A stretch of 45,981 nt of DNA, taken from positions 1-45,981 of the forward strand of contig JAUNJF010000026.1 in assembly GCA_030533405.1 (NCBI GenBank), written 5' to 3'. A program made the translations under genes and the position numbers. The DNA is from Eubacteriales bacterium (GTDB taxonomy: Bacteria; Bacillota; Clostridia; Lachnospirales; Lachnospiraceae). Of the stretch, positions 4,516-40,039 are shown piece after piece. A model generated the notes under the pieces. That model was not told the DNA's origin, did not search any database, and worked only from the letters and a program-made list of their open reading frames with translations. Numbering within the stretch: the first letter of the stretch is position 1; every line of letters begins with the position of its first letter.

Positions 4516-6780
4516 TTATTGTTCATAAATACTTGTTGCATTTTCAACTAGCCACTCATAGCCTTTTCGTCTTAATGCTTGATTTCTCCATATAGCTTCA
4601 GGACCAGTTGTACGCTCCAGGTCAATTCCAAAGCTACCATCTATCGCCTTAACAACCTGAGCAGTTTTATTCTTTCCTGTTTGGTAGCATTTATTATAAT
4701 TAGCTGACTCCAAGATAACTGCACAATAATTTTCCATAGCTCTTACCTTTAGCACAACCGATAATTTTTCTTCAAAATATTGTTTATCAATCTCTCCCTC
4801 ATGCTTATTGATAATAACATACTTTCGATTACCATACTTTTTCAGTTCCTTGGCATAAAGAAGCTTTTGCACTATCTCTGGTTTCATGATGTCCATGCCA
4901 TCAACACACAAAAACATGACATTATATTTATCAACCTTTTTAAGATAAATGCAATCCGCAATCTGCTCTGAACCTGCCAAAACTTCATCTACTCCGCCAA
5001 TAGGAATACTCAAATGACTATATTTGTTTTCCGTTTCAAATGGGTTGCTCTTATCTGCTTCTCCAATTCCATCCTCTTTGCTAACTTCATAAAGATAAAG
5101 ACAACCTGGCTCGTTTAATTGCTCTGTCTTTCCATTCAAATTTTTAGGAAGAATGATTCCACCATTTTTATTAAATCCATATACATAATTTGGTCCATTT
5201 ACAATTCTTCCATCGCCACCCATGGTTACAAGAGTGTAACAATTGTTTTCAATGGCTCTTGCCTTATTATACTTGAACCACTTATCGTATTTCACATTTC
5301 CACCAGTGCTATTGATAATCAAATCAATTCCATAGTAGCCATACATTCTGCTAAACAAAGCATGATTACAGTCATAGCATATGGTTAATCCAATGAGAAA
5401 TCCTTTATATACAATCGGATCAAAATTATCTGCAACAAACTGATCATAAAAATCAAATTCAAGGCAGGAACGACCTGTCATAGTATGCTTAATATACATT
5501 GTTGTTTGTGTCTCATTTTCACTCGCAAATGCATTGGCATATACGCTAAAAATAGTCTCATAAGAATCACATGAACTTACTACAACAGCTTTTCCCAATT
5601 CCTTACTAAAATCTAAGCATAATTCTTGCACTTTATTCACATCATCAATATATGCCAAGTCAAGTTTTGTCATATCTCTAACAAATGGGACATAGCAAAA
5701 CTCTGGAAAAACGATAATATCTGCATCCGATTCCTTCATAATAGTTAAAATTCTGTCAAAAGACTTTTTATTTTTCTTTTCATCTGTTTGAAGATACATT
5801 CCAACTTTGATTGTATCTTTTTCCATAGATTTTTTATTAGTCTCTTGCTCAATATATTTTCTTAACTGTTCTGCAGCATCAGGATTTTCAAAATCAATTT
5901 GACCATGCATAATACGAATGAGCTTATAACCATTTTCATAGCACGCAATATCTCTCGTACTATCATAATAAGCTCGTACCTCATCACGATTAGCTGGAGC
6001 ATTATCTTTTGCACCAATATCTTTACATGCCTTTATCCAAAGTTCTCTATCGAACATTACTGGAATATCTCTATAAGATTCAAGTGATACTCTTCTCGCT
6101 TCTGAAAAATGTTGTCTTTCATCATACTCAATAATAAGCTTTTGTCCTTCACAAACAAAATCACATCTGAGTGTAACATTCTTTTTAGCAAAGGTTGTAT
6201 CGCCTCGATATGCTGAAAGTGCATCATATAATTTCTTATATGGTCCTGTAATATCGTTTGGTGTCTTTAGCCACTCATATGTTTTTTCACATACAATGTC
6301 TCCGTCAAACATTCGATTCAAGATAAGTTGCAATGCGTTCTTTTGCTCGATTACCTTTTTTGAAGGAATAACAATTTTTTCCTTCAAGACTTCTTTCTCA
6401 CAAACTTCGATTTTTGGCTTAGTAACCTCAACCATTTTTTCAACTACTAGTTCTTTCTTTTCAATTGGTTCTTGTTTTTTCTCGACTTTCTTTGGTTCTG
6501 ATTTCTTTATGGTCGTAGCTCCATGATATTCCATATCAAATCCCAAGCGTTCAAAAAATCGAACCGTTTCGCTTCCACCGCCAAATTCACTTTTCGCAAT
6601 CTCAACACCATAATGCTCTTGATACGCCATTCCACGAATATGTTTCGCAGGTAACTTTTTCCCTTCATATACCAAAAATGTTGAACGTGGCTCTGGATAC
6701 TCTGGATTATCATTTAAGAAATTTTCAATAGCCATCACAACATCATCTTTTGTAATTTCAACCCAATTAAGTTTTGCCAT
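4516..6780 (-). CDS. Fusion protein: N-terminal head domain, PD-(D/E)xK-like nuclease, nitrilase (carbon-nitrogen hydrolase)
   Basis: A 754-residue protein with three parts. Residues 1-90 (KLPAKHIRGMAYQ, FGGGSETVRFFERLGF) resemble the head domain seen in some McrA-like restriction proteins. A Lys/Glu-rich linker follows. Residues about 140-320 resemble DUF559/Vsr-type PD-(D/E)xK nucleases, with Asp207 in CDFVCEGQ and Glu218, Asp220, Gln223 and His224 in IIEYDERQHF. Residues about 335-610 are a nitrilase-superfamily domain with the complete triad Glu360 (VFPEF), Lys431 (MYIKHTMTG) and Cys468 (LTICYDCNH). The ATG at 6780 has GGGGGA 7 nt upstream. It is monocistronic with its own terminator and lies beside a defence operon. 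The domain calls come from motifs; the combination suggests an antiviral role but this is inference. Confidence 0.85.
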   Translation of the reverse strand: MAKLNWVEITKDDVVMAIENFLNDNPEYPEPRSTFLVYEGKKLPAKHIRGMAYQEHYGVEIAKSEFGGGSETVRFFERLGFDMEYHGATTIKKSEPKKVEKKQEPIEKKELVVEKMVEVTKPKIEVCEKEVLKEKIVIPSKKVIEQKNALQLILNRMFDGDIVCEKTYEWLKTPNDITGPYKKLYDALSAYRGDTTFAKKNVTLRCDFVCEGQKLIIEYDERQHFSEARRVSLESYRDIPVMFDRELWIKACKDIGAKDNAPANRDEVRAYYDSTRDIACYENGYKLIRIMHGQIDFENPDAAEQLRKYIEQETNKKSMEKDTIKVGMYLQTDEKKNKKSFDRILTIMKESDADIIVFPEFCYVPFVRDMTKLDLAYIDDVNKVQELCLDFSKELGKAVVVSSCDSYETIFSVYANAFASENETQTTMYIKHTMTGRSCLEFDFYDQFVADNFDPIVYKGFLIGLTICYDCNHALFSRMYGYYGIDLIINSTGGNVKYDKWFKYNKARAIENNCYTLVTMGGDGRIVNGPNYVYGFNKNGGIILPKNLNGKTEQLNEPGCLYLYEVSKEDGIGEADKSNPFETENKYSHLSIPIGGVDEVLAGSEQIADCIYLKKVDKYNVMFLCVDGMDIMKPEIVQKLLYAKELKKYGNRKYVIINKHEGEIDKQYFEEKLSVVLKVRAMENYCAVILESANYNKCYQTGKNKTAQVVKAIDGSFGIDLERTTGPEAIWRNQALRRKGYEWLVENATSIYEQ

Positions 6781-6874
6781 TTGTATTCCCCCAATTGTTC
6801 TACACTTCAAATTAAAATTATTATAACATAGCTATTTCCCATAATAAAGTTTAGCATTTCTCCTATCAGTAAAA

Positions 6875-7468: not shown

Positions 7469-7500
7469 AAAGGAGCTTCCCCTATAAGGGAAACTCCTTT
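7469..7500. terminator. Bidirectional rho-independent terminator
   Basis: AAAGGAG-x-TTCCC pairs with GGGAA-x-CTCCTTT around a short loop, with A and T runs on the two sides. It can end the plus-strand 76-codon frame and the minus-strand AIPR operon, whose last stop is at 7505. Confidence 0.85.
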
Positions 7501-7504
7501 ATAT

Positions 7505-9643
7505 CTACTCACTCATAACGCTTTTAATAATTTCAATAATATCCTCACCATAGAGTGATATTTGCGCTTCATCCAAACATCTAAGTTCAGTAAGTTCTTC
7601 TACAGTCTCTGGTGCAAACTTAGCTATTCTATCAGCTGCGACATTTTTGAATACTTCATATGCTTTAACACGATTTAGCTTATATGCCTTTGTCCTGTAT
7701 TCAATAAGTGCCTCTTTGATTTCTGCAACCTTCTCATCCGGAATACTTGATTCAGCATTTAGATCAACAAAAACTACATTAACATACTTATCTAAAAGCA
7801 TTCGATCTCTATCTATTTCCTCTGTTGATGCCTGGTAGAACACCGAATCAAGAAACTCCTTATCCGTTCCGCTTATTCCATTTCTGAATTCAAAAGCTAT
7901 TTGCTTAAACACATATGATGCATAGTTACTATTCACTTTTGTAAAATTTGAGTAATTGTTATATTTCTCTTTGAATGTTTTTAGGAACTCATATCCCTGT
8001 CTATAGAATCTTACATAGCAAAATTCAAATAACTCAAATATTTTTTTCTTTTCATCCATTTCTGGATTTAGAAAGCCATGATCAATGTCATGTTGAGATA
8101 TTATTTCCATCTTCTGTTCAGTCATCACTGAATTAGCAATACTTTTAGCATAATCTTCATGATAATAAATCTTACATACAGCACCTATGATAGATGTCAT
8201 ATAGAGCATACCATTATTAATTAACCCCATACGGTATGGATCGCTAGCATCATCATTTTTCTTTTCCTGATTTAGCCAAAGTTTATAGTATGCTTTTATC
8301 TTAAGTAAATCCCTCAGAAAAGCACTATCATACTTTTTTCCATACAGCAGAGTATATCTCTCCTTATTACCACATATTGATGCCTTATTACTTCTTGCCG
8401 TACCTGGCTTCTGATACACATAAGAAAGCAAAAACTGTCCTAGTTCTTCATTTGTCGTATTCTGCCATGGCATAGGATATAACTTTTTATTAACTTTTTC
8501 GCCTCGCTTTATCTGGCAATATATACCTGCGTCCGCTAACTGCTTCTTGAGAAGTCTTTGTTCAGTTTTGTTGGCAATCAAATCTTTGTCTTTTATTGGT
8601 TTCTGTGTATTACTTGCCTCCGCAACTGCAGCAATAAAATCTAGTCGTTCTTCTTGCTCGACATATTTATTCTTAACTAATTTACATTGAACATAAAAAT
8701 CTGTATCAAAATCTGTCTCACCTATTAGCTTTGTTGTCTGACCACCATTAATAATAGAAAATTTCTTTATTCTTAATTCTTGTCCATCAAAATCGTATGC
8801 ATCACATATGATAATTATGCCATTATTGTAATACCAGAAATTATCCGGTTTTTCCTGCATTGATAAAATTATATTATCATCTACCTTTGCATTTTTAACA
8901 TAGTATCTAAGATTTTGTGAAAACAGTCCTCTATAGCTATACAGCTCATAAAGAGCCTTCACCGATTTTGCAGATACATTCACAATAATGGATTTTTCAT
9001 CCCCATATGTAAGGACATTTCCTGGTGAATCAATTGCCAACATCCCATCTTCTACATATTCCCTCGGATTCTCAACCTCAAGTATTTCGTGCTCAATATC
9101 ATATCCAAATACGATAGAATATGACAGGTTTTCTCTTTCCGGTTTTAATGCCGTAAATGCATTCAGAATCGATCTCTTATTGGCAGCACTTTTAGGATTA
9201 TAGTCCGTAATAAGTACAATCTTAATCTTCCTTGTAGATGTAATTTTATATTCGTCCTCTGAAATGATGTCTTTAATTTTTTGCCTTGGAATGATTTTGG
9301 AATCTACATAACTATTCACGATGTTTTCGGCATCTTTTATCTTCTTTAATTCTTTTGCCAATTCAAAGTTTCCATCTTCGCAACCTACCGCAACAACAAA
9401 ATCAAGATCAAGATTATCCGAATCAGTATCAATATAAACACCAGAAATACAATCCGATGCTTCTGTATCAGCTACAATTCCTCTAATCACCTCATCTGTT
9501 TTACTTACATCCGCAAAATAATAATGATAATAAGCATATAAAGATGTCATTATCGCTTCTTTCGAAAATCCTTCTGGTACTTCATATGAGTTATTTGCAA
9601 ACTCAATTGACATGTTTTCAACATATTTTTCTAATTCCCTCAT
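7505..9643 (-). CDS. AIPR-family (abortive infection phage resistance) protein
   Basis: A 712-residue protein with the AIPR hallmark region: SQNLRYYVKNAKVDDNI, then a NFWYYNNGIIIICD block and IINGGQTT (about residues 240-300). AIPR proteins are associated with abortive infection and occur in several defence gene clusters; their biochemical activity is poorly defined. The ATG at 9643 is preferred because it overlaps the upstream stop as ATGA and has GGAAG just before it. An earlier in-frame ATG at 9658 lacks a ribosome site. This is the last gene of a seven-gene operon and ends just before a strong terminator. It is probably an effector or regulatory subunit of that system. Confidence 0.9.
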   Translation of the reverse strand: MRELEKYVENMSIEFANNSYEVPEGFSKEAIMTSLYAYYHYYFADVSKTDEVIRGIVADTEASDCISGVYIDTDSDNLDLDFVVAVGCEDGNFELAKELKKIKDAENIVNSYVDSKIIPRQKIKDIISEDEYKITSTRKIKIVLITDYNPKSAANKRSILNAFTALKPERENLSYSIVFGYDIEHEILEVENPREYVEDGMLAIDSPGNVLTYGDEKSIIVNVSAKSVKALYELYSYRGLFSQNLRYYVKNAKVDDNIILSMQEKPDNFWYYNNGIIIICDAYDFDGQELRIKKFSIINGGQTTKLIGETDFDTDFYVQCKLVKNKYVEQEERLDFIAAVAEASNTQKPIKDKDLIANKTEQRLLKKQLADAGIYCQIKRGEKVNKKLYPMPWQNTTNEELGQFLLSYVYQKPGTARSNKASICGNKERYTLLYGKKYDSAFLRDLLKIKAYYKLWLNQEKKNDDASDPYRMGLINNGMLYMTSIIGAVCKIYYHEDYAKSIANSVMTEQKMEIISQHDIDHGFLNPEMDEKKKIFELFEFCYVRFYRQGYEFLKTFKEKYNNYSNFTKVNSNYASYVFKQIAFEFRNGISGTDKEFLDSVFYQASTEEIDRDRMLLDKYVNVVFVDLNAESSIPDEKVAEIKEALIEYRTKAYKLNRVKAYEVFKNVAADRIAKFAPETVEELTELRCLDEAQISLYGEDIIEIIKSVMSE

Positions 9644-10512
9644 ATGCTTCCACTCCATTCAGTAAATTTATCTATAAAACTCTTAAAGGGGATTTTTACG
9701 CTTTCCCATTCGCCACTTTCCTTATTTTCAGGCATATGTGAACTCATCTCTTTTGGCTTGACTATTGCCAATTTTTTCTTGCCTCCGCACAAATTCCACA
9801 AGTAAAAGGCATACTCCGTCACATGCGTTGCTACACGCCATTCATTTGACGAAATATGAAAATATGCATGCTCCATATCATCAGCAGAAGTCTTCACCTC
9901 AATAAGTAATGGCGTATTATCTGTTTGGGATGCTACAGACATTATGTCATATCCAAGCATATTACTATCTATAGACCTCCACAAAGGTTTCTTATCAACT
10001 CTTTCAGTTTCAAACGCAATTGTGCATTTTTCTCCACTTCTACCAGTTTCGTTTTTCAATGCATCCACACGCTTTCTAATGATCTCTGATAGATTATCCC
10101 ACCATAAAACCACTCCATAATCAGGATATTCATCTAACAATCCTGCTTCATAAAAACATGACTTTTCATCCTTGGTCATGAATGTAGTAGCTTCGCATCT
10201 ACCATATGGGATTCTTTTCGACCATATTGGTTCAGTATGTAGAACATATTCCCTTAAGATAACTCGAATACCTTTATCATAATTATCACTTGCATCAAGC
10301 AATACCTTTGTCCCAGTATCAGATAATATTAAATTTTCACTATGCTTAACAATTAGTCGGCAAACTGTAAGCATCTCTAATAGATCATCTACATCAATAT
10401 CAGATATCCTATATAGCGAGTGAACTTCCGCATAAGGAGTTTCATCTTCTGATCCAACTATTCTTAACAATGATAATGATGCAGAAATAACATTCATTGA
10501 TAGTCTGATCAT
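9640..10512 (-). CDS. DUF3883-domain (nuclease-like) protein
   Basis: A 290-residue protein. Residues about 1-75 look like a winged-helix domain (SLYRISDIDVDDLLEML, then LILSDTGTKVLLD). Residues about 150-270 match the DUF3883 pattern: GYDIMSVASQ, then PLLIEVKTSADD, which gives the D-x(n)-E-x-K signature of PD-(D/E)xK nucleases, and YAFYLWNL. DUF3883 modules recur in restriction and defence proteins next to helicases. The ATG overlaps the helicase stop as ATGA, so translation is coupled. It may be the DNA-cleaving subunit of this operon, because the BglII-like partner lacks its expected catalytic acids. The nuclease assignment is inferred from the motif. Confidence 0.8.
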   Translation of the reverse strand: MIRLSMNVISASLSLLRIVGSEDETPYAEVHSLYRISDIDVDDLLEMLTVCRLIVKHSENLILSDTGTKVLLDASDNYDKGIRVILREYVLHTEPIWSKRIPYGRCEATTFMTKDEKSCFYEAGLLDEYPDYGVVLWWDNLSEIIRKRVDALKNETGRSGEKCTIAFETERVDKKPLWRSIDSNMLGYDIMSVASQTDNTPLLIEVKTSADDMEHAYFHISSNEWRVATHVTEYAFYLWNLCGGKKKLAIVKPKEMSSHMPENKESGEWESVKIPFKSFIDKFTEWSGSI

Positions 10513-12311
10513 TCTTCACTATAGCCAAAGAAATAATCTATTATTGCCTTAGCATCTCCTTCGGAAATATTTTCATCATCTTCGTTTTCATCATCATATT
10601 CATATTCAGCTGGATTTACGCGTAATGATGAATCGTTAAGTGCATCTGCCATTATATTGACTTTATATGCTAAGCGTTCTCTTATTACCTGGTCAATGCT
10701 GTTTTCACATTCAACATACTCTACAACAGGTTTAGCGTCTGGAGCCAATCCTAATCTATGGATTCTATCTTCTGATTGTAGATAATGCGCTGCATTAAAC
10801 GATCTATCAAGATAGATTGCATTCTGACACACTTTGTGTAAACTAATTCCTTCAGAACAAGCAGCAGGATTAGCAACCATAATCATACAGTTTGGATCAT
10901 CATGAAATTTTTTTATTTTGCCTTCACGAGTATCTTCCTCATTCTCATCACCAGCATCAACTTTTCCATGTATGTAAACTGCCCCCAAATCACTCAGTCT
11001 TAGCGCTATCAGCTCAACATTCTGTACAAAAGAAGACCATATCAACACCTTCTTCCCTTCATACGCTAATTCTCTAGCTCTTTTACATACATATTCTATT
11101 TTAGGTCCATCTGATTCAAGTAATGCTTCTCCAACTCTACGATCAAAAGCATAATCCATATCAAACGCCAACAAAGAAGGATTCGAAACAAACTGCATAA
11201 CCTTCATTATGCATTTGCCTATTCTTCTTAACTCATATCGTGATGAATCAGTAAGCATAGGATTCATCTGTCTCTTAGCTTCTGACTTTAATGTATTATA
11301 TATATTTCTTTGAAGCTCTGTCATTTTAACAGTAACTACTTTATGAGTAATCTCTGGTATACCCAATTGTCCTTTGGTTGTTCTTACATATAACGGCTGA
11401 ATCAGATCAATTACTGTATTTTCGTCCACATCCTTAGCTGGATATAAAAATCTAAACTGTGGCACCAAATCTTTCGGACTTTGAGGCATAGGAGTACCAC
11501 TCATTATTAATTTTCTTTGTGGTAAATGTGCTATTTCTAATACTGCTTCTGCTCTTGTCTTTCCACCTTTAATTCGATGACTTTCATCCAGGAAAACAAA
11601 GTAGTTCCCCGATGTAAGCATCTCAACAATAGTAGCCTTTACGCGAGGAAGTTGATCGTATGTAATAATAGAAAATCGTGGTCTTTTCTCTACTAAGCTT
11701 TTAATTGCAGCTTCGCCACCTCTTAATCTTACTATTTCATCAGAACAATTAGGTTCACATACTTCAAGCTGTTCATCCCATGCACCAAACGCATTTTTAG
11801 GAGCAACTATTAATAATCTATCCTCAGGCTTTGCATTTATGAAGAAATATGCTAGAGCCTCCGTTGTTTTTCCGGCTCCTGGTACAGAGAATGTTGCAGC
11901 ACCTGGCAATTGCGAAATCTTCATTAAATTATTGACCTGGTTGTTTGTAAGCTTTCTTTCAAATCCGCTATCAATGAGCGTATTCTCTATCTCGAATTCG
12001 GTTCGTCCAGATAACTTAATTGCAGAAGCATACGAAGTTTCATTATTTGCTGTTATCATTCTTTTTGCAGCATCTGTTAACTCCATTTTAATTTCGCTTC
12101 TGTGAGACTTTACAAAGGAAACGATATATCCTTTTATTCTGATAAAATAGCCCCAAGACAGACTCATGCTAATATCAGAATATTCAATAATACTCTGTGG
12201 AACATAATCACACATAACTGTATACATAGAACGCCACAGCTTATTATTATCACCACTATTTGAAATGTACGCTTTTTCACTATAGCAAATATAGTCTATC
12301 TTAATGTCCAT
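10509..12311 (-). CDS. SNF2-family DEAD/DEAH-like helicase/translocase
   Basis: A 600-residue superfamily 2 ATPase. Visible motifs are Walker A SVPGAGKT (about residue 143), motif II LDESHRIKGG (about 245), motif III MSGTPMPQSP, and motif VI SEDRIHRLG near residue 510. The motif VI form is typical of the SNF2 branch. About 130 residues precede the helicase core and may form an accessory domain; a very acidic tail follows it. It starts 3 bp after the ParB-like gene. In defence operons SNF2 translocases move along DNA and license restriction. Here it probably drives DNA tracking for the methyltransferase/nuclease complex. Role inferred from context; the enzyme class is clear. Confidence 0.93.
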   Translation of the reverse strand: MDIKIDYICYSEKAYISNSGDNNKLWRSMYTVMCDYVPQSIIEYSDISMSLSWGYFIRIKGYIVSFVKSHRSEIKMELTDAAKRMITANNETSYASAIKLSGRTEFEIENTLIDSGFERKLTNNQVNNLMKISQLPGAATFSVPGAGKTTEALAYFFINAKPEDRLLIVAPKNAFGAWDEQLEVCEPNCSDEIVRLRGGEAAIKSLVEKRPRFSIITYDQLPRVKATIVEMLTSGNYFVFLDESHRIKGGKTRAEAVLEIAHLPQRKLIMSGTPMPQSPKDLVPQFRFLYPAKDVDENTVIDLIQPLYVRTTKGQLGIPEITHKVVTVKMTELQRNIYNTLKSEAKRQMNPMLTDSSRYELRRIGKCIMKVMQFVSNPSLLAFDMDYAFDRRVGEALLESDGPKIEYVCKRARELAYEGKKVLIWSSFVQNVELIALRLSDLGAVYIHGKVDAGDENEEDTREGKIKKFHDDPNCMIMVANPAACSEGISLHKVCQNAIYLDRSFNAAHYLQSEDRIHRLGLAPDAKPVVEYVECENSIDQVIRERLAYKVNIMADALNDSSLRVNPAEYEYDDENEDDENISEGDAKAIIDYFFGYSEE

Positions 12312-12314
12312 ACT

Positions 12315-13601
12315 TTACTTAATCCAATCCTTCAAAACTACCAAAGCAGCTTCGATATTTTCAATCTGTCGAGCTACACCTTCTTTATTCATATCATCGC
12401 TTAAGTTTGATACTGCATTATTAAGTGCTGTAGCTGATTTTACTACTTGTTCAAAAATGAAGCCTTTTTTCTTCTTTTCCTTTTCCATCTCATCTTTGGA
12501 TTCGATCACAATTCTAACCGTATCGACTACCTTTGCAGGATCTTCAGCAGTACGTATTTTTTCTGCGATCCTTGCATTTTTCATATCGATATCACTTTGA
12601 TCTCCTCCACCTAAGATGTCCAAATCATCTTCCACTTCAGTCTCGGCTTCAATATCTATTCCAAATACCTCTGTAAGTTTTGGAGATATGTCCCCCAAAT
12701 TTGCAACAATTTTAGGAATTTGATTATAGAGTCGATCTCCCTTTGCTGGAGTCTGCAATATAGATTTTGATATCTCCTGAAACAGCTCTTTATCTCCAGG
12801 GTTTTTCAGGTTTTTTCTTCCCTTAACAATCTCTCTAAATGCATAAAATTGTTTATCTACTAATGACCATTCATCCGGATGTCCTATTGATTCAAGGTAT
12901 TCCGAAGCATAATCATAACACTCAATCAGTGTACCTATTTCATTCGGAGATTTACCAGATTTCTTTGCAATGATATCAATGCCCGTTCCTGACTCTGAAC
13001 GTTCTTTTGCATCTGCTGCAGTAGAATGCCAATCATATTCTGCCTTCATGGGTGATTGTATCTGTAGCTCGTATTCTAAATCTGCCATTCCGACTTTATC
13101 GTGATTAGGCAAGACAGCAACTCTTATCATTTCAAAATGCTTATATTTCTCTTTATCTGAATAGTAAAGTTCTCTCCATGCGCAGAGTCTTCTATTACCA
13201 TTTACTACTATCCCATTATCTGAACAAATAATAGGATCCTTTTGTTGCATACCCTCTTTCTTACCGTCTTTTTTGAAAGCGGATAAGAGATTTTCCTTAT
13301 CTACAACTTTTTTAAGCAGCTCATGCTGTGTCTCTTGAGCTTCAATAGAAAATGGATCTCTCGTAAATAAATCTTTCGCACATTCCGGATGTCTTGCAAG
13401 CCATTCTTTCTGTATATTCTTTGTTCGAATATTTTCCATTCTATATACAAGAGCTTCGATTCTTATCTCAATGACAGGTAACGGTCTATATTTACCTTGA
13501 TAATTTTCATAATGGTTTTCTTTTGAAGAACTTAAAGCTTCTTCAATTGCCATTTTTCTTTTTGTCTCTGGATATCCAAATTGATACTGTTCTATCATCA
13601 T
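12315..13601 (-). CDS. ParB/Srx-like nuclease-fold protein
   Basis: A 428-residue protein with a ParB/sulfiredoxin-like core. After a VIEIRIEALVYR strand region comes DPIICSDNGIVVNGNRRLCAWREL (GNRR-x-x-A-x-x-x-L signature, about residues 125-145), then MADLEYELQIQ. A KSGKSPNEIGTLIECYDY segment resembles the ParB helix-turn-helix. The C-terminal third is helical and acidic. ParB-like folds bind CTP or DNA, and some have nuclease activity. The start ATG at 13601 overlaps the upstream stop and has AGGGGG 5 nt before it. In this operon it could load the helicase or recognise DNA state. Fold assignment is fairly strong; function is inferred. Confidence 0.8.
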   Translation of the reverse strand: MMIEQYQFGYPETKRKMAIEEALSSSKENHYENYQGKYRPLPVIEIRIEALVYRMENIRTKNIQKEWLARHPECAKDLFTRDPFSIEAQETQHELLKKVVDKENLLSAFKKDGKKEGMQQKDPIICSDNGIVVNGNRRLCAWRELYYSDKEKYKHFEMIRVAVLPNHDKVGMADLEYELQIQSPMKAEYDWHSTAADAKERSESGTGIDIIAKKSGKSPNEIGTLIECYDYASEYLESIGHPDEWSLVDKQFYAFREIVKGRKNLKNPGDKELFQEISKSILQTPAKGDRLYNQIPKIVANLGDISPKLTEVFGIDIEAETEVEDDLDILGGGDQSDIDMKNARIAEKIRTAEDPAKVVDTVRIVIESKDEMEKEKKKKGFIFEQVVKSATALNNAVSNLSDDMNKEGVARQIENIEAALVVLKDWIK

Positions 13602-14065
13602 TTATCCCCCTCAGCAAATCCAACTACTACAAGTGGCATAGTAATAACTTGTTCAAATATAGGCAATTCCTTTACTACCCTTTCAAAATTAGCACTATTT
13701 GATCCGAACACAGTAACCATGCTTTTCATGGGAACAATCAATACCCCTGCAATAATGTTTCCCTTCACAAATAATGTTTGAAGTTTTAATAAATCGGCAT
13801 ACACTCGTCCAACATTTCCAGTTTGAAAACAGAGCCCGATATTTTGTTGAAATGATGTAATGGTAATCTTAGAATCTACGTCTAACCTATATTCGTCTGA
13901 CCAACCTTCATGCATTAATTTCTCTTTTAAGTCAGGCTTTACTATAGCAACATTACTCTTTTGCACCTTATTTTGATAGTCGGCGAACACCGAAATAGTC
14001 TTCTCTAGAACATCATGAGGAACAACCTTACTTCCACATCTATGATCATATTTTTCAATTATCAT
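13598..14065 (-). CDS. BglII/BstYI-like restriction-fold protein with altered active site
   Basis: A 155-residue protein. KLMHEGWSDEYRLDVDSK is followed by IGLCFQTGNVGRVYADLLKLQ and GNIIAGVLIVPMKS. This matches the core of BglII/BstYI-type endonucleases, where the expected motif is D-x(8)-E-x-Q followed by a G(N/K) and a DLLK helix. The Gln and the helix are present, but the catalytic Glu is replaced by Cys and the Asp position by Thr/Ser. It is also shorter than BglII-type enzymes (about 200 residues). It sits directly after the methyltransferase with a TAATG overlap and a good GGAGG site. I infer a catalytically altered or inactive DNA-recognition subunit. Confidence 0.65.
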   Translation of the reverse strand: MIIEKYDHRCGSKVVPHDVLEKTISVFADYQNKVQKSNVAIVKPDLKEKLMHEGWSDEYRLDVDSKITITSFQQNIGLCFQTGNVGRVYADLLKLQTLFVKGNIIAGVLIVPMKSMVTVFGSNSANFERVVKELPIFEQVITMPLVVVGFAEGDK

Positions 14066-14982
14066 TAGTTATCTCCCTCCTTTGTCCTTTTAGGTGCTAT
14101 TGCATTCTTATCCTTTGCAGAAGGCTTATATATCTCTTGATAAATTGGTCTTGTTTGCAAGGTTCCTTCTTTTAATCTCTTGATTCTATCTTCACCTATT
14201 TTTACATATTTTTTCTCTAATTCAGTTCCATATGCTATTCGGTTATTTTTCAACGCTGCTATTATTGAGCTACCGACTCCACAAAAAGGATCATAAACTA
14301 TATCACCTTCATCTGTTAGTGCTAGAACGCACCTCTCAACCAGCTCAACTGGGTACTGACATGGATGTTCAACCTTTTCGACATGATTTGACTTAACATT
14401 GGGAATATCCCATATCATTGCGTCCCAATCATCAATTAAGCGTTCCTGTGTCATTTCCCACACATCTTCTGGATTTTTCCCTAACGAATTGCATGAGTAC
14501 TGTCCCTTTTTCTCACCTTTATAATATTTCTTTCCCGGATACTTTGCAGGAACTCTTACTGAATCAAGATTAAAAGTATAATCACTACTTTTCGTAAACC
14601 AAAGGATCGTTTCATACCTACCACTAAATCTATTCTTACAGTGCAATCCATGTCCAAAGTGCCATATAATTCTATTCCTCAGTTTCAATCCAAGTTCCTT
14701 AAAAATGGGATAAAAATACATATCCAGTGGATACACTTCACCATCATCTATATAATTTCCTGTTTGCCAGCATAAACTCCCACCATCAGCAAGAATTCTT
14801 ACAAGTTCAGAAAGAATTGGTTTCAAGTTATTAAGGTATTCTTCTATGCTTTTTTTTGATTCGTACTCTTTACCAATATTGTAAGGTGGTGATGTTATAA
14901 CCAGCTTGACCGTCCCATCTGGTATCTTTTTCATAAATTTTAATGCATCTTGGCATTTATACTTATATTCCATTAACTCCAT
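14065..14982 (-). CDS. Beta-class DNA methyltransferase (N4-cytosine or N6-adenine)
   Basis: A roughly 305-residue amino-methyltransferase. Motif IV TSPPYNIGK comes first (about residue 33), and motif I DPFCGVGSSIIAAL with the following LEKKY comes near the C-terminus. That order defines the beta class, which acts on exocyclic amino groups of A or C. VEHPCQYPVELVERCV precedes motif I, as is usual. Two ATGs are possible, at 14982 and 14973; both overlap the upstream HTH gene by up to 20 bp, and neither has an ideal ribosome site. It probably provides self-protection for this operon. Whether the product is m4C or m6A cannot be told from the sequence. Confidence 0.92.
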   Translation of the reverse strand: MELMEYKYKCQDALKFMKKIPDGTVKLVITSPPYNIGKEYESKKSIEEYLNNLKPILSELVRILADGGSLCWQTGNYIDDGEVYPLDMYFYPIFKELGLKLRNRIIWHFGHGLHCKNRFSGRYETILWFTKSSDYTFNLDSVRVPAKYPGKKYYKGEKKGQYSCNSLGKNPEDVWEMTQERLIDDWDAMIWDIPNVKSNHVEKVEHPCQYPVELVERCVLALTDEGDIVYDPFCGVGSSIIAALKNNRIAYGTELEKKYVKIGEDRIKRLKEGTLQTRPIYQEIYKPSAKDKNAIAPKRTKEGDN

Positions 14983-15166
14983 TGTTATTCTCAGCCTTCT
15001 TTCTACCTCTTTTTTGACAGATAGGTTTTTCTGCATTATCAGGAATAAGCCATGTATTACCCTTTAACACAGCTCCTTCTATCCTTCCTTCATTGCATAA
15101 GGTTGTAATTCTACGAGTAGAAATGTCCCATTTTTCAGATATTTCTGATGTTGTTAATAATTCCAT
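14963..15166 (-). CDS. Small helix-turn-helix protein heading the defence operon
   Basis: A 67-residue protein with one helix-turn-helix of the MerR/excisionase type: LLTTSEISEKWDISTRRIT, then EGRIEGAVLKGNTWLIPD. The ATG at 15166 is preferred because GGAGG lies 8 nt upstream; a TTG codon 15 nt earlier overlaps that site. It overlaps the start of the methyltransferase gene and is preceded by a near-consensus promoter. Small HTH proteins of this kind often control restriction-modification operons or help subunit DNA contact. Probably an autoregulator. Confidence 0.85.
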   Translation of the reverse strand: MELLTTSEISEKWDISTRRITTLCNEGRIEGAVLKGNTWLIPDNAEKPICQKRGRKKAENNNGVNGI

Positions 15167-15186: not shown

Positions 15187-15215
15187 ATTATATTCTTTTT
15201 GCGGAACAAATTCAA
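15187..15215 (-). promoter_or_regulatory. Sigma-A promoter of the seven-gene defence operon
   Basis: On the minus strand TTGAAT (15210-15215) and TATAAT (15187-15192) are separated by exactly 17 bp. The expected start of transcription near 15180 leaves a very short leader before the GGAGG site and the ATG at 15166. Confidence 0.75.
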
Positions 15216-15578: not shown

Positions 15579-16814
15579 TTATAAAAAATTAATCTTCTTG
15601 GATAAATCTTCCATTGCAGCTTTCTTCTTTGCGAAGTTGACTTCAGTATAAATATCAAGTGTAGTCTCAACATTCGCATGACCCATAACTTCCTGGATCA
15701 CTTTAATATTTGTCTCATTCTCACACAACCTACTGCAGAACGTGTGTCTTAAATGGTGGCATGAAAAATGAGGAATAATAACAGGTTCCCTATGCTCTCT
15801 CTTTGCATCTATAACTTCCTTGGCATTGTAAGTTTCACTGATTCTCTCAATTGCCTTATTGATGCAGTGTGGATTATGAAGTGTTCCATTTCTATTACTG
15901 AAAATAAATCCACTTAATCCTTCAAGTTCATATGTGCAGAACCCATCTCTCTTCTGGCGCTCATACTCTTTTTCTAAAACATCATGCACAGCATCCATCA
16001 TTGGAATCTGACGAACACCTGCTTCAGTTTTGGGAAGCGATACACCAAAAGAACTCTTGCGATTTTCTCTTACATAATAGGATACGCTATGATTAACACT
16101 AATACTTCTTTCCTTCAGATCAATATCAGACCATCTAAGTCCAACCACTTCTCCTACTCGACATCCGGTTCCTAATAAACAGGTAAATAATGGAAGCCAG
16201 TGTTCAAATTCTGGAAACGCTGTAATTGCATTCATAAACGCGCCCTGCTGTTCCACTGTAAGAGCATGTCTGATGCCCTTATTCTTCCATCCTGATTTTT
16301 TGATTTCTGCCATAACTCCATCCGTTGGATTCTTTCGAATCACATCATCACGAACTGCCATAGCAAATGTCGGATGCAACACTGTATGCACAGTGTCCAA
16401 TGTGTTAATCTGTAATCCTTTGTCATTCAACAGACTGTAATAAAATGTCTTGATATCAGAATACTTTATATCAGCAATTCTTCTTGGTCCGATATCTTTT
16501 CTTACAAACTGGTCATACATATAAGTGTAATTTGACCTTGTTGATTGACGCAGATTATACTTTGTGGACATATATCTATCGAATGTCATATTTAATGTAG
16601 CATTGCCGGCGGCATATACATCAAGCCCATCCAGCTGGTCCTTCATCAGTTGCTTCTCTTTGACTCTAAGTTCAGTGAGATCTCCTGCATATACGGACTG
16701 CCACTTTCCTAAAATATCACGGTAACGATATACATATACTCCATCGCAGCTTCTTTGATATTCTCCCTTTTGTAAGACTCTGCCTTTGTCATCTTTGCGT
16801 GACTTTTTTGCCAT
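15579..16814 (-). CDS. int: Tyrosine recombinase / integrase of a mobilizable element
   Basis: A 411-residue phage/ICE-type integrase. The N-terminus (about residues 10-60, YVYRYRDILGKWQSVYAG) is an AP2-like arm-binding domain. A SAM-like core-binding domain follows (about 70-170). The catalytic domain shows Arg in GTGCRVGEVVGLRW, His and Arg in HHLRHTFCSR, and the nucleophile Tyr in LDIYTEV near residue 389. The ATG at 16814 has AGGA 8 nt upstream. It lies at one end of a unit that also carries an RHH protein, mobC and a relaxase, so it most likely integrates that unit by site-specific recombination. The att sites could not be identified with confidence. Confidence 0.95.
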   Translation of the reverse strand: MAKKSRKDDKGRVLQKGEYQRSCDGVYVYRYRDILGKWQSVYAGDLTELRVKEKQLMKDQLDGLDVYAAGNATLNMTFDRYMSTKYNLRQSTRSNYTYMYDQFVRKDIGPRRIADIKYSDIKTFYYSLLNDKGLQINTLDTVHTVLHPTFAMAVRDDVIRKNPTDGVMAEIKKSGWKNKGIRHALTVEQQGAFMNAITAFPEFEHWLPLFTCLLGTGCRVGEVVGLRWSDIDLKERSISVNHSVSYYVRENRKSSFGVSLPKTEAGVRQIPMMDAVHDVLEKEYERQKRDGFCTYELEGLSGFIFSNRNGTLHNPHCINKAIERISETYNAKEVIDAKREHREPVIIPHFSCHHLRHTFCSRLCENETNIKVIQEVMGHANVETTLDIYTEVNFAKKKAAMEDLSKKINFL

Positions 16815-16855
16815 CTCTCATTCCTTTCTACGAGGATGAGATCTGTACCGATTGT

Positions 16856-17032
16856 CTACTGATTTCCGTCCTTCTCATATAGAAGACTCAGAGCATCAGA
16901 AACAACCTGTGTTATGGTCTGATCATGTTTATCTGTGTAAGCCATGAGTTCCTCACGCTCTTCTTTTGTTAATCTGATTGTGATTTTCTGATCCCTCGGA
17001 TTTTCTTCCTTAGGTCTTCCTGCACGGCCCAT
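16856..17032 (-). CDS. Ribbon-helix-helix protein upstream of integrase
   Basis: A 58-codon frame too short for many gene callers, with ATG at 17032 and an excellent GGAGG site. The product begins MGRAGRPKEENPRDQ; the segment KITIRLTKEERDELMAY is a ribbon-helix-helix strand plus first helix, and TITQVVSDALSLLYE is the second helix. It lies 41 bp before the integrase start, on the same strand. Proteins of this type next to integrases often act as regulators or recombination accessory factors. Role inferred from position. Confidence 0.8.
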   Translation of the reverse strand: MGRAGRPKEENPRDQKITIRLTKEEREELMAYTDKHDQTITQVVSDALSLLYEKDGNQ

Positions 17033-17131
17033 GTGAACACCTCCTTACATGACCTAAAACCATTATAATTGTTGTCTTACATAATTGCAAGCAATTTTTG
17101 TCTGACAACATTAAGATCTCGTTTCCCCATG

Positions 17132-17362
17132 CTATCTGATTTCAAATAGCTCCAAATATTCTTCAAAAATTTTTGCATCAACAAGAACCATCTGCTTAGG
17201 TTTAAACAAACATGGCTTAAAGTGTTCATGACAATCCTTAGCAAGTCTTTCAAACTCTTTTTGGCTCATTTCATATAAAAAAGCACCCGTCTTATAACGG
17301 ATGAATCTCTTCGGCCAACCTGTCTGATTTTCCAGATTAAGAATATCAAGATATCTGCCCAT
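17132..17362 (-). CDS. DUF6462-like small protein (excisionase-like)
   Basis: A 76-residue protein: FIRYKTGAFLYEMSQKEFERLAKDC, then MVLVDAKIFEEYLELFEI. This pattern matches small winged-helix proteins (DUF6462) that occur next to integrases in clostridial mobile elements. Some resemble excisionases, which bias recombination toward excision. The ATG at 17362 has AGGGG 9 nt upstream. It lies 99 bp before the RHH gene. Family assignment is from memory of the pattern; the excisionase role is inference. Confidence 0.65.
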   Translation of the reverse strand: MGRYLDILNLENQTGWPKRFIRYKTGAFLYEMSQKEFERLAKDCHEHFKPCLFKPKQMVLVDAKIFEEYLELFEIR

Positions 17363-17703
17363 AACGCTGTACCCCTTTCTATAATAATTGGCTTATCTGC
17401 CGATGACAAAGCAGCTGCTACTGCACTCTCATCGTAAGATAAACCTGGGGATCTTTTATTAAAAAAAGTACACACAAGTGGCTGGCTCATTACACCGCCC
17501 ACATCGGTCTTGCACCGTCTCTTCCTATTGGACCGGATTACTCCGGAAGTATCATTATCACAAACACAGATCTTCGCCCCTGCTAATTCACAATTTCGGT
17601 TAATGTCTACCGCTCCTAACCTTAACTTCAATATGACTAATTCATATTCCTTCGCATTCACTTCTACATATATAAAAGCAGATTCATCTTCGCGCATCAC
17701 CAA
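17266..17703 (-). other. Doubtful 145-codon frame in a 515-bp region without a clear gene
   Basis: Between the DUF6462-like gene and the XRE gene, a minus-strand frame runs from an ATG at 17703 with a GGGAG upstream and continues through the first 97 bp of the DUF6462 gene in another frame. The N-terminal part (FIYVEVNAKEYELVILKLR) looks protein-like; the rest (many Cys, Arg and Ser) does not resemble a known family. The DNA here is richer in G and C than its neighbours. It may be a small real gene, a frameshifted relic or chance. 17704-17877 shows nothing definite. Confidence 0.25.
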
Positions 17704-17877
17704 TCAGGCTCCCTGCATTCTCACGTTCCTGCATGTACAAACCAATATTCAATTTTCAAGGTACACTTTCTGATTTCTCAGACATTGGATAAAATAATGT
17801 GACTCACCTAAATCGTCAGTCAGTAAAATGCACAACACAAACTGTTAAAGAGTTATGCACTTTATTTGAATGACGAT

Positions 17878-18270
17878 CTATTTTTGTAATGACATCATTA
17901 GTTCCTGCAATCCCTGTTGAATTTCAATCATATAATCAATTCTTTCTTCTTCCGGAATGATTAATAACTCTCTCATCTGTTTGGAAATACTTGCAGCACA
18001 ATTTCGGATCATTTTCTCCTGCGTTGGCGTATCGTCCCAAAAGATTCCATTTTCTTCATTTCCATAGAATATATAGTCCATGCGGAGATTCCATTTTCTA
18101 CAAAGTTTTATCAAATACTCCTCTGCTATTGGTCTTCGTCCATGCACCATATCACGATATGAAGAAACCTCCACACCTAAAATAGATGCAACATCTTTAT
18201 CTATATATCCCAGCATTCTTTGGGCACATCTTATTCGTAATCCAATTTCTTCATAATCGTGTTTATCCAT
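17878..18270 (-). CDS. XRE-family regulator
   Basis: A 130-residue protein with one Cro/CI-type helix-turn-helix in its first half: IGLRIRCAQRMLGYIDKDVASIL, then VEVSSYRDMVHGRRPIAEEYL, followed by a helical tail. The start at 18270 is preferred because GGAGG lies about 11 nt upstream; an ATG 9 nt earlier is only 2 nt from that site. It is in the regulatory section of the mobilizable element, opposite the conjugation genes, and is a candidate repressor of integration or transfer genes. Confidence 0.85.
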   Translation of the reverse strand: MDKHDYEEIGLRIRCAQRMLGYIDKDVASILGVEVSSYRDMVHGRRPIAEEYLIKLCRKWNLRMDYIFYGNEENGIFWDDTPTQEKMIRNCAASISKQMRELLIIPEEERIDYMIEIQQGLQELMMSLQK

Positions 18271-18377
18271 ATTCTTCATCACCTCCTTGATTGTACCAAC
18301 AAACACGCTCATATCTGGTCTGTCAGCTACCTCTTAAAAGTGTGGTTATTTCACTTATTACCCTTAAAGGGAATAGC

Positions 18378-18416
18378 AAAAAAATAGAGTACCCAGATGT
18401 TATTCCTGGATACTCT
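18378..18416 (-). terminator. Rho-independent terminator
   Basis: On the minus strand AGAGTATCCAG pairs with CTGGGTACTCT (one G-U pair) around a 9-nt loop and is followed by ATTTTTTT. It lies between the candidate small RNA and the XRE gene and acts as a second stop for transcription coming from the right. Confidence 0.75.
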
Positions 18417-18480
18417 ATCATTACTTCTATCATTATTCTTATAACTACCTTAATAGTAAACACCACCCTATTTTATATAA

Positions 18481-18634
18481 TAAAAAAGCCAACCAAGTAT
18501 GGAAATTTCCATACCTAGTTGGCTCTGCGTCATTGCGTCTGGCTCTGCAATATAAAAGTGGACAACCCAAAATGCTGCCCACTGGTTCTGCGTCTATGAT
18601 GAAAATCCATCTGCGTCTGACTCTCTTTATATCT
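18481..18634 (-). ncRNA. Candidate small structured RNA (about 155 nt) with repeated GACGCAGA motif
   Basis: The unit has a near-consensus promoter (18641-18669), a strong terminator with an 18-bp stem (18488-18523) followed by TTTTTTATT, and no convincing reading frame. Within the RNA, GACGCAGA occurs three times exactly (18610-18617, 18587-18594, 18524-18531) and once partly (18534-18539). The copies fall between predicted hairpins: GATG/CATC, GTGGGCA/TGTCCAC and the terminator stem. Regular single-stranded repeats between hairpins suggest a protein- or RNA-binding regulatory RNA. I know of no family with this layout. Located between the XRE gene and the oriT-like region. Confidence 0.5.
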
Positions 18635-18640
18635 ATATTC

Positions 18641-18669
18641 ATTATATGTTCTGACACCAGATATCGCAA
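18641..18669 (-). promoter_or_regulatory. Promoter of the candidate small RNA
   Basis: On the minus strand TTGCGA (18664-18669) and TATAAT (18641-18646) are 17 bp apart. The predicted start near 18634 lies just before the first GACGCAGA motif. Confidence 0.6.
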
Positions 18670-18748
18670 TTCCACAATAAGGGAACACCTTGACGATACC
18701 TCTCTTTTTCCATAATATAATCTTGGATAAAATAAACTGCTCAGAAAA

Positions 18749-18790
18749 CTGTTATAGGACAATTTATGTCTTATAGCAGCTTTTTTTATT
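18749..18790 (+). terminator. Plus-strand rho-independent terminator
   Basis: CTGTTATAGGACA pairs with TGTCTTATAGCAG (two G-U pairs) around a short loop and is followed by CTTTTTTTATTT. No plus-strand gene precedes it, so it may end an untranslated transcript. Confidence 0.65.
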
Positions 18791-18845
18791 TGGTCCTGAA
18801 AAGGACATAAGCATTCAAAGATGCTCACCTAAGTTCGCTGAATGC

Positions 18846-19004
18846 GCAAATCTACCGAAGTAGATTTGCAAAGGAATAGCAAGCACTGCCTGTGGTCCCC
18901 CACAGGCTAGATTTCGCAGCTATATATAATAAGAAGAAACTGCTTCAATCTGCTTGCTGGGGATATCCCCCGACCCCTTATAAAAAAACGTGCCAGATAT
19001 GGCA
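18846..19004. other. oriT: Candidate origin of transfer (oriT) region
   Basis: The stretch just before mobC carries four inverted repeats in 160 bp: a perfect 10-bp stem with CGAA loop (18846-18869), a perfect 8-bp stem GCCTGTGG/CCACAGGC (18888-18907), a 12-bp palindrome GGGGATATCCCC (18959-18970) followed by a C-rich run, and TGCCA/TGGCA (18991-19004). Clustered inverted repeats upstream of a MobC-relaxase pair are typical of an oriT. The nick site cannot be assigned. Confidence 0.5.
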
Positions 19005-19053
19005 ATTTTAATCATTACACTAATCTAAATCATTAGAACAGGAGTGATATTTT

Positions 19054-19398
19054 ATGAAAAAAAACAGAACCAGAACCATAGAATTTAAGTTAAGACTTTC
19101 CGAAGATGAATCAATTATTTTAACAGAAAAATGGAAAAGATCTGGAATGAAAAGTAGAAATGCTTTTTTGCGACACCTGATAATTTATGGCTTTGTTTTT
19201 GACGTTGATTACTCAGAGCTACGAGAATATAATTCACAGCTCGCTCATATTGGAAACAACCTGAATCAGATTGCAAAACGAGCAAATGAAAATGGTTTAG
19301 CTACTAATTCTGACCTAAAAGAAGCAAAGGAGTTGATGGATAAAATATGGCATACACAAAAATCCATGCTATCAAAGCAACCATTAATAAAGCAGTAG
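19054..19398 (+). CDS. mobC: MobC-like relaxosome accessory protein
   Basis: A 114-residue protein of the bacterial mobilization MobC type: TIEFKLRLSEDE as ribbon strand, RSGMKSRNAFLRHLI as helix, then AHIGNNLNQIAKRANENG, the family's most characteristic motif. MobC binds oriT and helps the relaxase open the DNA. AGGAG lies upstream of the ATG. It overlaps the relaxase gene by 52 bp and lies directly after the oriT-like hairpins, which fits a mobilization operon read on the plus strand. Confidence 0.92.
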   Translation: MKKNRTRTIEFKLRLSEDESIILTEKWKRSGMKSRNAFLRHLIIYGFVFDVDYSELREYNSQLAHIGNNLNQIAKRANENGLATNSDLKEAKELMDKIWHTQKSMLSKQPLIKQ

Positions 19399-23179: not shown

Positions 23180-23222
23180 ATGAGCAGCAACAACGGTGCT
23201 ATTTTACCAATGCAGCTGCTCA
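23180..23222 (-). terminator. Terminator after agrB
   Basis: On the minus strand GAGCAGC and GCTGCTC pair across a 26-nt interval and are followed by ATTTCTTTTT. It overlaps the last codon of agrB. The long loop makes it a weaker prediction. The stretch 23041-23179 shows no gene. Confidence 0.55.
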
Positions 23223-23960: not shown

Positions 23961-24051
23961 AGTCTTTTCTCCCCTCATTTTTTATTTAAGTGTACCGCTT
24001 AATATCAGTATTTCATTCACTATGTAATAATTACGAGGTTATTCGTATTTT

Positions 24052-38879: not shown

Positions 38880-39038
38880 TTTCCGTTCTCCTATACACTT
38901 CGAACTTTACCTGTTTCCTAATCCAGACTAAAGAACTACTGTGCATCTTCTTTTTTTACTATATTATCAAATTCTTCAAGAACATTTTGGCTATATACTC
39001 CCTTATATGCTCCGTCTCTTCCCATCAGTACTTGCAAA

Positions 39039-40034: not shown

Positions 40035-40039
40035 ATTTA

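What the first reader, a model, noticed from the sequence alone, without database searches (positions are those of the whole stretch)
7505..15166. Seven-gene coupled operon: HTH, methyltransferase, BglII-like protein, ParB-like protein, SNF2 helicase, DUF3883, AIPR
Seen: seven frames on one strand, joined by overlaps (ATGA, TAATG) or 3-bp gaps, behind one near-consensus promoter and closed by one terminator. Known: each family occurs in restriction or defence loci. Inference: they form one multi-subunit anti-phage machine in which methylation marks self, a DNA-tracking helicase and ParB-like loader license attack, and DUF3883/AIPR provide effector functions. I do not know this exact combination as a described system (it differs from DISARM and BREX in content).
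Basis: partly seen in the sequence, partly recalled or inferred. Interest (0 to 1): 0.82.

Follow-up and report, generated by a model that had tools for sequence, protein, structure and literature searches.

The report
Restriction system with dead enzyme sensor
A set of five neighbouring bacterial genes, found in very different bacteria, looks like an unnamed DNA-defence machine in which a once-active restriction enzyme has lost its cutting site and probably only recognises foreign DNA, while a motor and a separate nuclease do the work.

Summary
The operon is real. Its conserved unit is five genes, not seven: MTase, BglII-like protein, ParB-like protein, SNF2 motor, NOV_C/DUF3883 protein. Of the 80 ParB-like loci kept (best of 126 confirmed) from a scan of species genomes, 43 carry all five in this order, over seven phyla; two carry AIPR, one intact.

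The new point: the BglII-like protein has lost the catalytic glutamate position of BstYI/BglII/BamHI in 52 of 52 rows, and the aspartate too in the BstYI register. All 12 stand-alone relatives fetched are acidic there (10 Glu, 2 Asp); three sit beside the same MTase family. The gene is under strong purifying selection. NOV_C keeps its E/D/ExK residues in 69 of 69-70 rows.

Most likely this is an ATP-dependent restriction-modification system: the MTase marks self, the dead enzyme reads unmodified (R)GATC(Y)-like sites, ParB-like and SNF2 proteins assemble or track, NOV_C cuts. Function is inferred; no structure could be computed; some relatives show no BglII-like reader. My PADLOC, NCBIfam and paper searches returned no such combination. 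I rate it a new variant of a known kind.

The parts
14963..15166 (-). Small HTH_17-type DNA-binding protein (67 aa), probable regulator; accessory
   Evidence: Pfam HTH_17 E 1.4e-4, PADLOC mad1 3.8e-4; homologue beside the ParB-like gene in 1 of 80 loci, L015
14065..14982 (-). Beta-class amino-MTase (TSPPY motif; predicted N4-cytosine or N6-adenine), core gene 1; alternative ATG at 15036
   Evidence: Pfam N6_N4_Mtase 1.7e-52; motif SPPY 57 of 57 rows; 54% identical to the MTase beside the BstYI-like enzyme in L124
13598..14065 (-). BglII/BstYI/BamHI-family protein without the catalytic glutamate: predicted site reader, core gene 2
   Evidence: Pfam BglII 3.9e-11; family profile against PDB: BstYI 5.2e-8, OkrAI 6e-4, BamHI 8.1e-4; columns C79 and T70 acidic in 0 of 52 rows, Q81 52 of 52; the alternative first acid D62 is Asp in 39 and Glu in 1 of 52
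12315..13601 (-). ParB-superfamily-like protein with NGNRR box, a likely HTH and an acidic C-terminal part; predicted loader or adaptor, core gene 3
   Evidence: ddrB-ParB in 20 of 29 homologues, best 9.2e-5; G135, N136, R138, E176 each 95 of 95, N57 92, R59 94, Q180 94 of 95
10509..12311 (-). SNF2-type SF2 ATPase (600 aa), predicted translocase, core gene 4
   Evidence: SNF2-rel_dom 9.3e-17, Helicase_C 8.3e-7; in GAGKT G145, G147, K148 and T149 are 73 of 73 and A146 69 of 73; D242 72 of 72, E243 73 of 73, H245 72 of 73
9640..10512 (-). NOV_C/DUF3883 protein with intact E/D/ExK residues, predicted effector nuclease, core gene 5
   Evidence: NOV_C 2.6e-10; E161 69/70, D189 69/69, E205 69/70, K207 69/70
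7505..9658 (-). AIPR-family protein with C-terminal HRDC domain; accessory
   Evidence: AIPR 1.1e-30, HRDC 9e-6; AbiU 1.3e-24, MzaE 2.3e-9; in 2 of 80 loci, L013 intact and L014 broken
15187..15215 (-). Promoter-like TTGAAT-17-TATAAT upstream of the HTH gene
   Evidence: not above chance as a pattern, place is apt
7477..7493 (-). Terminator-like hairpin after the AIPR gene
   Evidence: weak T tail

Best explanation
An ATP-dependent restriction-modification system derived from a BstYI/BglII-type R-M pair. Shown by sequence: a five-gene unit (MTase, BglII-like, ParB-like, SNF2, NOV_C) inherited together across seven phyla, in which the BglII-like protein has lost the catalytic glutamate (and, in the BstYI register, the aspartate) but is strongly constrained, and NOV_C keeps a complete PD-(D/E)XK-type set. 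Inferred: the MTase methylates GATC-core sites (RGATCY-like, probably N4-methylcytosine) on self DNA. The dead enzyme binds the same site when unmethylated. The ParB-like protein joins or loads the complex. The SNF2 motor then moves or remodels DNA, and NOV_C cuts. HTH and AIPR are lineage-specific additions, for control and perhaps a back-up effector.
For: 43 of 80 loci have all five genes in order, most with 4-nt overlaps for SNF2/NOV_C and many for MTase/BglII-like. Distance matrices of all five genes correlate at r 0.81-0.97 over 41 of the 44 complete sets (43 loci plus window; L016, L023 and L042 dropped as cut or split) against shuffled maxima of at most 0.47. The Glu column is acidic in 0 of 52 cassette readers but in 12 of 12 stand-alone relatives (10 Glu, 2 Asp); profile alignment, probability 99.1, puts the columns in register. 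The stand-alone L124 enzyme matches BstYI over its whole length (E 4.7e-92) and sits beside an MTase 54% identical to the window's. A second loss in L062 (D to N, E to N), which groups with acid-keeping L124, its motor lying outside the other BglII-type motors. A second slot family, BanI/DpnII-like, has D to S in 2 of 2. NOV_C residues intact; DUF3883 was called a novel REase domain in PMC3710099 (passage).
Against: No experiment and no structure (structure prediction was busy at every try). The loss of the first acid depends on the register: the ungapped BamHI alignment pairs window D62 with BamHI residue 94, and D62 is Asp in 39 and Glu in 1 of 52 rows; OkrAI's and the profile alignment give T70 instead. 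In the BanI/DpnII-like pair the Glu is replaced by Asp, still an acid. Cassettes without a BglII-like gene exist: L131 and L031 (MTase then ParB directly), and a proteobacterial group with MTase after NOV_C (L038, L040, L047, L069, L072), so the MTase may recognise sites itself. L078 has an apparently intact RecB/Cas4-like PD-(D/E)XK protein in the slot. Of 80 loci, 11 have the ParB-like gene with none of the others. No PDB sequence match for NOV_C, and no ParB chain in the PDB profile searches. The CTPase boxes are only partly like canonical ParB (recalled), so loading is a guess.
Confidence: 0.57

Rival explanations
1. An ordinary Type II R-M pair (MTase plus BglII-like endonuclease) that happens to sit in a defence operon; the enzyme cuts by an unusual active site.
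For: Same families and gene order as stand-alone BstYI-like R-M pairs. D62 (Asp 39, Glu 1 of 52) could be the first acid in a BamHI-like register. Several REases have atypical active sites (general knowledge).
Against: The Glu column is non-acidic in 52 of 52 rows but acidic in 12 of 12 stand-alone relatives; co-inheritance with three further genes. D91 and E133, 52 of 52 in the cassette rows, lie outside the catalytic strand; D91 aligns with the DL or NL seen in BglII-type acid-keeping relatives.
Confidence: 0.13
2. The MTase itself is the recognition subunit (as Mod is in Type III systems); the dead enzyme is an accessory that guards or exposes sites or tethers the MTase, and ParB-SNF2-NOV_C are recruited through the MTase.
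For: Cassettes of the same motor family with this MTase but no BglII-like gene found: L131, L031 and the L038/L040/L047/L069/L072 group. C5-MTases directly before ParB in L133 and L141 (Pfam) and, by alike sequence, L142.
Confidence: 0.2
3. A DNA-methylation-dependent gene-control or chromosome-handling device, with a RapA-like SNF2 and ParB-like protein, not a defence system.
For: ParB and SNF2 relatives have such roles (general knowledge); no phage test exists.
Against: Patchy spread over phyla, plasmids and 5 IMG/VR contigs, 3 of them with all five genes (two of these identical); conserved nuclease residues in NOV_C; DNA-modification genes near relatives in 3 of the 5 plasmid loci, with Vsr in 2 (L005 has no annotation there and L007 shows none).
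Confidence: 0.1

Closest known systems
BstYI / BglII Type II restriction-modification systems
   Same: MTase of the same family (54-56% identity to the L124, L126, L127 MTases) and a homologous endonuclease fold (BstYI 5.2e-8); MTase and enzyme genes adjacent
   Different: Catalytic Glu position lost; three extra conserved genes (ParB-like, SNF2, NOV_C)
CglI / NgoAVII ATP-dependent R-M systems (PMC4267653, abstract and outline seen)
   Same: MTase, separate recognition protein and separate helicase-like ATPase; in those, cleavage by the R-protein needs ATP hydrolysis by the N-protein
   Different: There the R protein recognises and cuts; its PLD and B3 domains (recalled) are not matched by any window protein.
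BREX-related (BR) systems with Swi2/Snf2 helicase and N6-MTase (PMC12839542, passages seen)
   Same: SNF2 motor plus endonuclease as effector and MTase for self; inactive REase-like fold inside the helicase
   Different: DUF499 ATPase-centred with BREX-type parts; none matched in the window operon
MZA (MzaE) and AbiU
   Same: AIPR family protein (MzaE 2.3e-9, AbiU 1.3e-24)
   Different: No other Mza protein matched; AIPR is accessory here
DISARM, Dpd, Zorya helicases
   Same: SNF2/SF2 helicase core (DpdE 4.3e-19, ZorD 6.4e-18, DrmA 4.4e-5)
   Different: No other component of those systems matched, apart from a weak shared-domain hit (DpdF 6.2e-5 on the HRDC part of AIPR); of the MTase's 72 matches only 25 were shown

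Membership tests
Type II R-M (BglII/BstYI/BamHI family) | Endonuclease fold related to BstYI/BglII | tested here: met
   By sequence only: Pfam 3.9e-11; BstYI 5.2e-8 by profile; hhalign probability 99.1 to 7 stand-alone members
Type II R-M (BglII/BstYI/BamHI family) | Catalytic acids retained in the endonuclease | tested here: not met
   Glu column acidic in 0 of 52 rows against 12 of 12 stand-alone members; Asp column T70 acidic in 0 of 52 against 10 of 12 (the two BamHI-type rows do not align there); D62 is a possible other first acid in 40 of 52
Type II R-M (BglII/BstYI/BamHI family) | Cognate MTase adjacent | tested here: met
   MTase upstream with BglII-like, SNF2 and NOV_C in 43 of 80 loci; same MTase family in L124, L126, L127
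Type II R-M (BglII/BstYI/BamHI family) | Cleaves at its site without ATP | not testable with these tools
   needs biochemistry
CglI/NgoAVII-type R-M | R protein with PLD nuclease and B3 recognition domain (recalled) | tested here: not met
   no such Pfam match in any operon protein at E 0.1
BREX / BREX-related | PglZ, BrxC/DUF499-type proteins | tested here: not met
   no Pfam or PADLOC match in the operon
DISARM | DrmA helicase with DrmB | tested here: not met
   only weak helicase matches (DrmA 4.4e-5, DrmD 1.2e-4); no DrmB match shown
MZA | MzaA-D beside AIPR protein MzaE | tested here: not met
   only the AIPR domain matches, 42.7 bits against a cut-off of 1050; no other Mza model shown
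MADS | Mad proteins beyond the small HTH | tested here: inconclusive
   only mad1 at 3.8e-4 shown; of the 72 families matched by the MTase only the best 25 were shown, so a Mad MTase model could be among the rest
ParB superfamily (ParB-like protein) | ParB N-terminal domain | tested here: inconclusive
   ddrB-ParB in 20 of 29 members, best 9.2e-5, window 0.0086, below cut-off; no ParB chain in the PDB by profile; no fold computed
PD-(D/E)XK nuclease (NOV_C) | D ... ExK catalytic residues | tested here: met
   D189 69/69, E205 69/70, K207 69/70, E161 69/70; the fold itself was not tested

The most novel reading that the evidence does not exclude
A class of restriction systems in which Type II endonucleases have repeatedly been turned into catalytically dead site readers that license a common ParB-SNF2-NOV_C effector: a swappable recognition slot on one ATP-driven nuclease module, with MTase and dead enzyme forming a matched pair.
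Probability: 0.43. Interest if true: 0.86.

Novelty: new variant of a known kind. Interest (0 to 1): 0.73.

Why it matters
If true, bacteria have reused some of the best-studied sequence-specific proteins (BamHI/BglII-fold enzymes) as dead DNA sensors for a separate motor-nuclease. That would be a new solution to how recognition is coupled to ATP-dependent cutting, and a natural source of modular recognition parts. It makes sharp predictions: GATC-core methylation, a dead enzyme that binds but does not cut, and NOV_C as the cutter. It would also put NOV_C/DUF3883, a domain that recurs in defence loci, directly to the test.

Tried and rejected
Rejected: a seven-gene unit (AIPR 2 of 80, HTH 1 of 80; with the contig-end caution). 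Rejected as homologues: L003, L004 and their wider regions L011 and L012, coiled-coil look-alikes in topoisomerase-like and ABC-protein-like genes (labels from the sequence).

Led nowhere: NOV_C against PDB sequences gave nothing; the ParB profiles found no ParB chain; the L002/L010 slot protein found no REase chain by single sequence; the phage collection held no relative of the ParB-like protein. The 280-aa slot family of 14 loci (Actinomycetota and Pseudomonadota, beside Dcm/Vsr in L008 and L009 and near a cytosine MTase in L006) has no Pfam match in the 4 members scanned (L006, L080, L090, L092). It carries an invariant IQKG followed by a near-invariant CPDG, but I could not say whether it is a dead enzyme. 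L078's slot protein looks like an intact RecB/Cas4-type nuclease, against a simple rule that the slot is always dead. L126 has a SNF2 gene near its R-M pair, but it is a DUF3670-type SNF2 with a SWIM partner and matches this motor's profile only at 101 bits.

Mended on checking: the stand-alone enzymes are Glu in 10 and Asp in 2 of 12, not Glu in all; loss of the first acid depends on the register (D62); two of the five IMG/VR contigs are identical. For this I lowered the main reading from 0.60 to 0.57 and the novel case from 0.45 to 0.43, and raised the ordinary-enzyme rival from 0.10 to 0.13.

Papers: searches (open-licence PMC only) gave no description of this combination that I saw in the listings or passages. 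PMC12839542, PMC10853773, PMC3710099, PMC2890505 and PMC4081073 were seen in passages only; PMC4267653 by abstract and outline. That is not proof of novelty: preprints and most subscription papers are not held, and PADLOC-DB here is of 2023.

The machine was busy, so no fold search was made.
Full report
Observation. Pfam confirms the MTase, BglII-like, SNF2, NOV_C/DUF3883 and AIPR labels, and the HTH and ParB labels weakly. The promoter-like and terminator-like sites are in apt places but are not statistically remarkable.

Conservation. In the own family 4 of 299 genomes gave any match to the ParB-like protein: the window itself, one distant relative (G166) and two coiled-coil look-alikes. In the phylum 9 of 398 matched, the own genome included. 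One pattern scan of the species-genome collection confirmed 126 relatives, of which the best 80 were kept. By profile, 43 of the 80 have MTase, BglII-like, ParB-like, SNF2 and NOV_C in that order on one strand. A further 15 have ParB, SNF2 and NOV_C with no MTase or BglII-like gene found in the upstream place (one, L066, begins at the contig end). Eleven have the ParB-like gene with none of the others, and the remaining 11 are partial or mixed. The 43, many of them MAGs, include Bacillota, Bacteroidota, Pseudomonadota, Planctomycetota, Spirochaetota, Nitrospinota and Verrucomicrobiota (labels). Four of five IMG/VR hits also carry MTase, BglII-like, ParB and SNF2, three of them with NOV_C; two of these three are identical sequences. 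Distances among the five genes correlate strongly (r 0.81-0.97, 41 rows). One exception concerns the window itself: by BLAST its MTase is nearer to most proteobacterial cassettes (best 58-59%) than to L013, L014 and L016 (52-54%), while the other four genes are nearest to L013/L014. That suggests an MTase swap, but on the MTase tree the window sits at an unresolved fork, so this is a lead only.

The dead enzyme. Single-sequence search links the 155-aa protein to BamHI (2.3e-4), and the family profile to BstYI (5.2e-8), OkrAI and BamHI. In PD-(D/E)XK enzymes two acids bind the metal, and the third position may be K, E (BamHI) or Q (BglII) (PMC4081073, passages). The residue numbers BglII D84/E93/Q95, BstYI D119/E128/Q130 and BamHI D94/E111/E113 are recalled; the BstYI and BamHI letters are visible. 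In the cassette family the third position is Q in 52 of 52. The Glu position (C79) is Q 34, C 12, H 4, A 1, N 1; the Asp position as placed by the alignments (T70) is F 27, T 18, S 4, N 2, Y 1. So no acid is left at either place in 52 rows (51 distinct, two of them fragments). A caution: the ungapped BamHI alignment pairs D62 with BamHI residue 94, and D62 is Asp in 39 and Glu in 1 of 52; so the loss of the Glu is firm, that of the Asp rests on the BstYI/BglII register. In the phylum, PF09195 matched 11 of 348 genomes (12 places, two of them cassettes) and PF02923 4 of 348 (2 over cut-off). The 12 stand-alone enzymes fetched (10 BglII-type, 2 BamHI-type) are all acidic at the Glu column (10 Glu, 2 Asp), and 10 of 12 at the Asp column, the two BamHI-type rows not aligning there. 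Three of them (L124, L126, L127) sit beside an MTase of the cassette family, with no ParB-like gene in the fetched stretch; L124 matches BstYI over its full length (4.7e-92). BstYI cuts RGATCY (recalled), and M.BstYI is described as possibly an N4mC enzyme (PMC2890505, passage). This is the basis for the site prediction.

Loss more than once. On the enzyme tree the cassette label needs two changes: L062 lies with the acid-keeping L124 (97/83 and 99/93), with both acid positions replaced by N. The tool flags L062 as a long branch. The motor tree puts L062 with L078, apart from the two main BglII-type groups. A second slot family, in L010 and L132, is BanI/DpnII-like (L132 below the curated cut-offs). 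Against an acid-keeping BanI (L135) and DpnII (L136), the Asp is Ser in 2 of 2, and the Glu is Asp, still an acid. Purifying selection on the BglII-like gene is strong (omega 0.010-0.062 in the 7 of 10 pairs where dS was finite; lowest dN of the five genes in 7 of 10, tied in 1), so it is not a decaying relic.

Effector. NOV_C keeps E161, D189, E205 and K207 in 69 of 69-70 rows. DUF3883 was called a novel REase domain fused to SNF2 in an R-M operon (PMC3710099, passage). The SNF2 ATPase motifs are intact. The ParB-like protein has an invariant NGNRR-type box (G135, N136 and R138 in 95 of 95 rows) and a likely HTH; whether it binds CTP is unknown.

Mechanism. I commit to an ATP-dependent R-M reading: MTase marks self, the dead BstYI-like protein reads unmodified sites, ParB-like and SNF2 proteins assemble and move or remodel, NOV_C cuts (0.57 for the whole). 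The steps from reader onward are inference. Results against it: cassettes with no BglII-like gene found (L131, L031 and the L038/L040/L047/L069/L072 group), C5-MTases directly before ParB (L133, L141, and by alike sequence L142), an apparently intact nuclease in the L078 slot, the undefined 280-aa slot family in 14 loci, and the D62 register. They show that the recognition side is swappable, and perhaps that the MTase can do the job alone.

Known systems. No PADLOC or NCBIfam model fits the operon as a system; helicase, AIPR and MTase matches are shared-domain matches (for the MTase 25 of 72 PADLOC matches were shown). The nearest functional precedent is CglI/NgoAVII, an MTase, recognition/nuclease protein and helicase needing ATP (PMC4267653, abstract). 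Paper searches found no description of this combination in the open-licence library. I therefore call it a new variant of a known kind (ATP-dependent R-M) and leave open that the dead-reader principle is a class of its own.

Noticed in passing
window 37383-44491: A second defence-like cluster: TmtA-like protein (PADLOC 1.3e-147), SLFN_AlbA_2 plus TIR protein, and FRG-domain PDC-S15 protein.
   Followed up: partly
window 4516-6810: Carbon-nitrogen hydrolase fused to a DUF559/DUF7255-like N-terminal part; a WYL-domain regulator lies further on at 1886-2890.
   Followed up: no
window 15579-20846: Tn916-type integrase, DUF6462 protein and MobA-type relaxase: probably an integrative mobilizable element abutting the start of the operon.
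   Followed up: partly
L015 1274-3222: HTH gene directly before ParB-like and SNF2 genes, with MTase and reader absent; a short MAG contig.
   Followed up: partly
L014 13961-15004: AIPR gene ends after 64 codons and is followed by fragments that look integrase-like (from the sequence).
   Followed up: no
L006-L009, L077, L080, L084, L086-L092: A 280-aa slot family with invariant IQKG and near-invariant CPDG before ParB-SNF2-NOV_C, near cytosine MTase (and in two cases Vsr) genes in three plasmids; fold unknown.
   Followed up: partly
L133, L141, L142: C5-cytosine MTase of about 540 aa with an extra C-terminal part directly before ParB-SNF2-NOV_C (L142 by alike sequence).
   Followed up: partly
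window 12315-15036 against L013-L092: The window MTase is nearer to proteobacterial cassettes than to its Clostridia neighbours, unlike the other four genes: a possible MTase swap.
   Followed up: partly
window 23220-26068: AgrB-like protein, histidine kinase and LytTR-type regulator, resembling an agr quorum-sensing set (from the translations; labels recalled, not searched).
   Followed up: no
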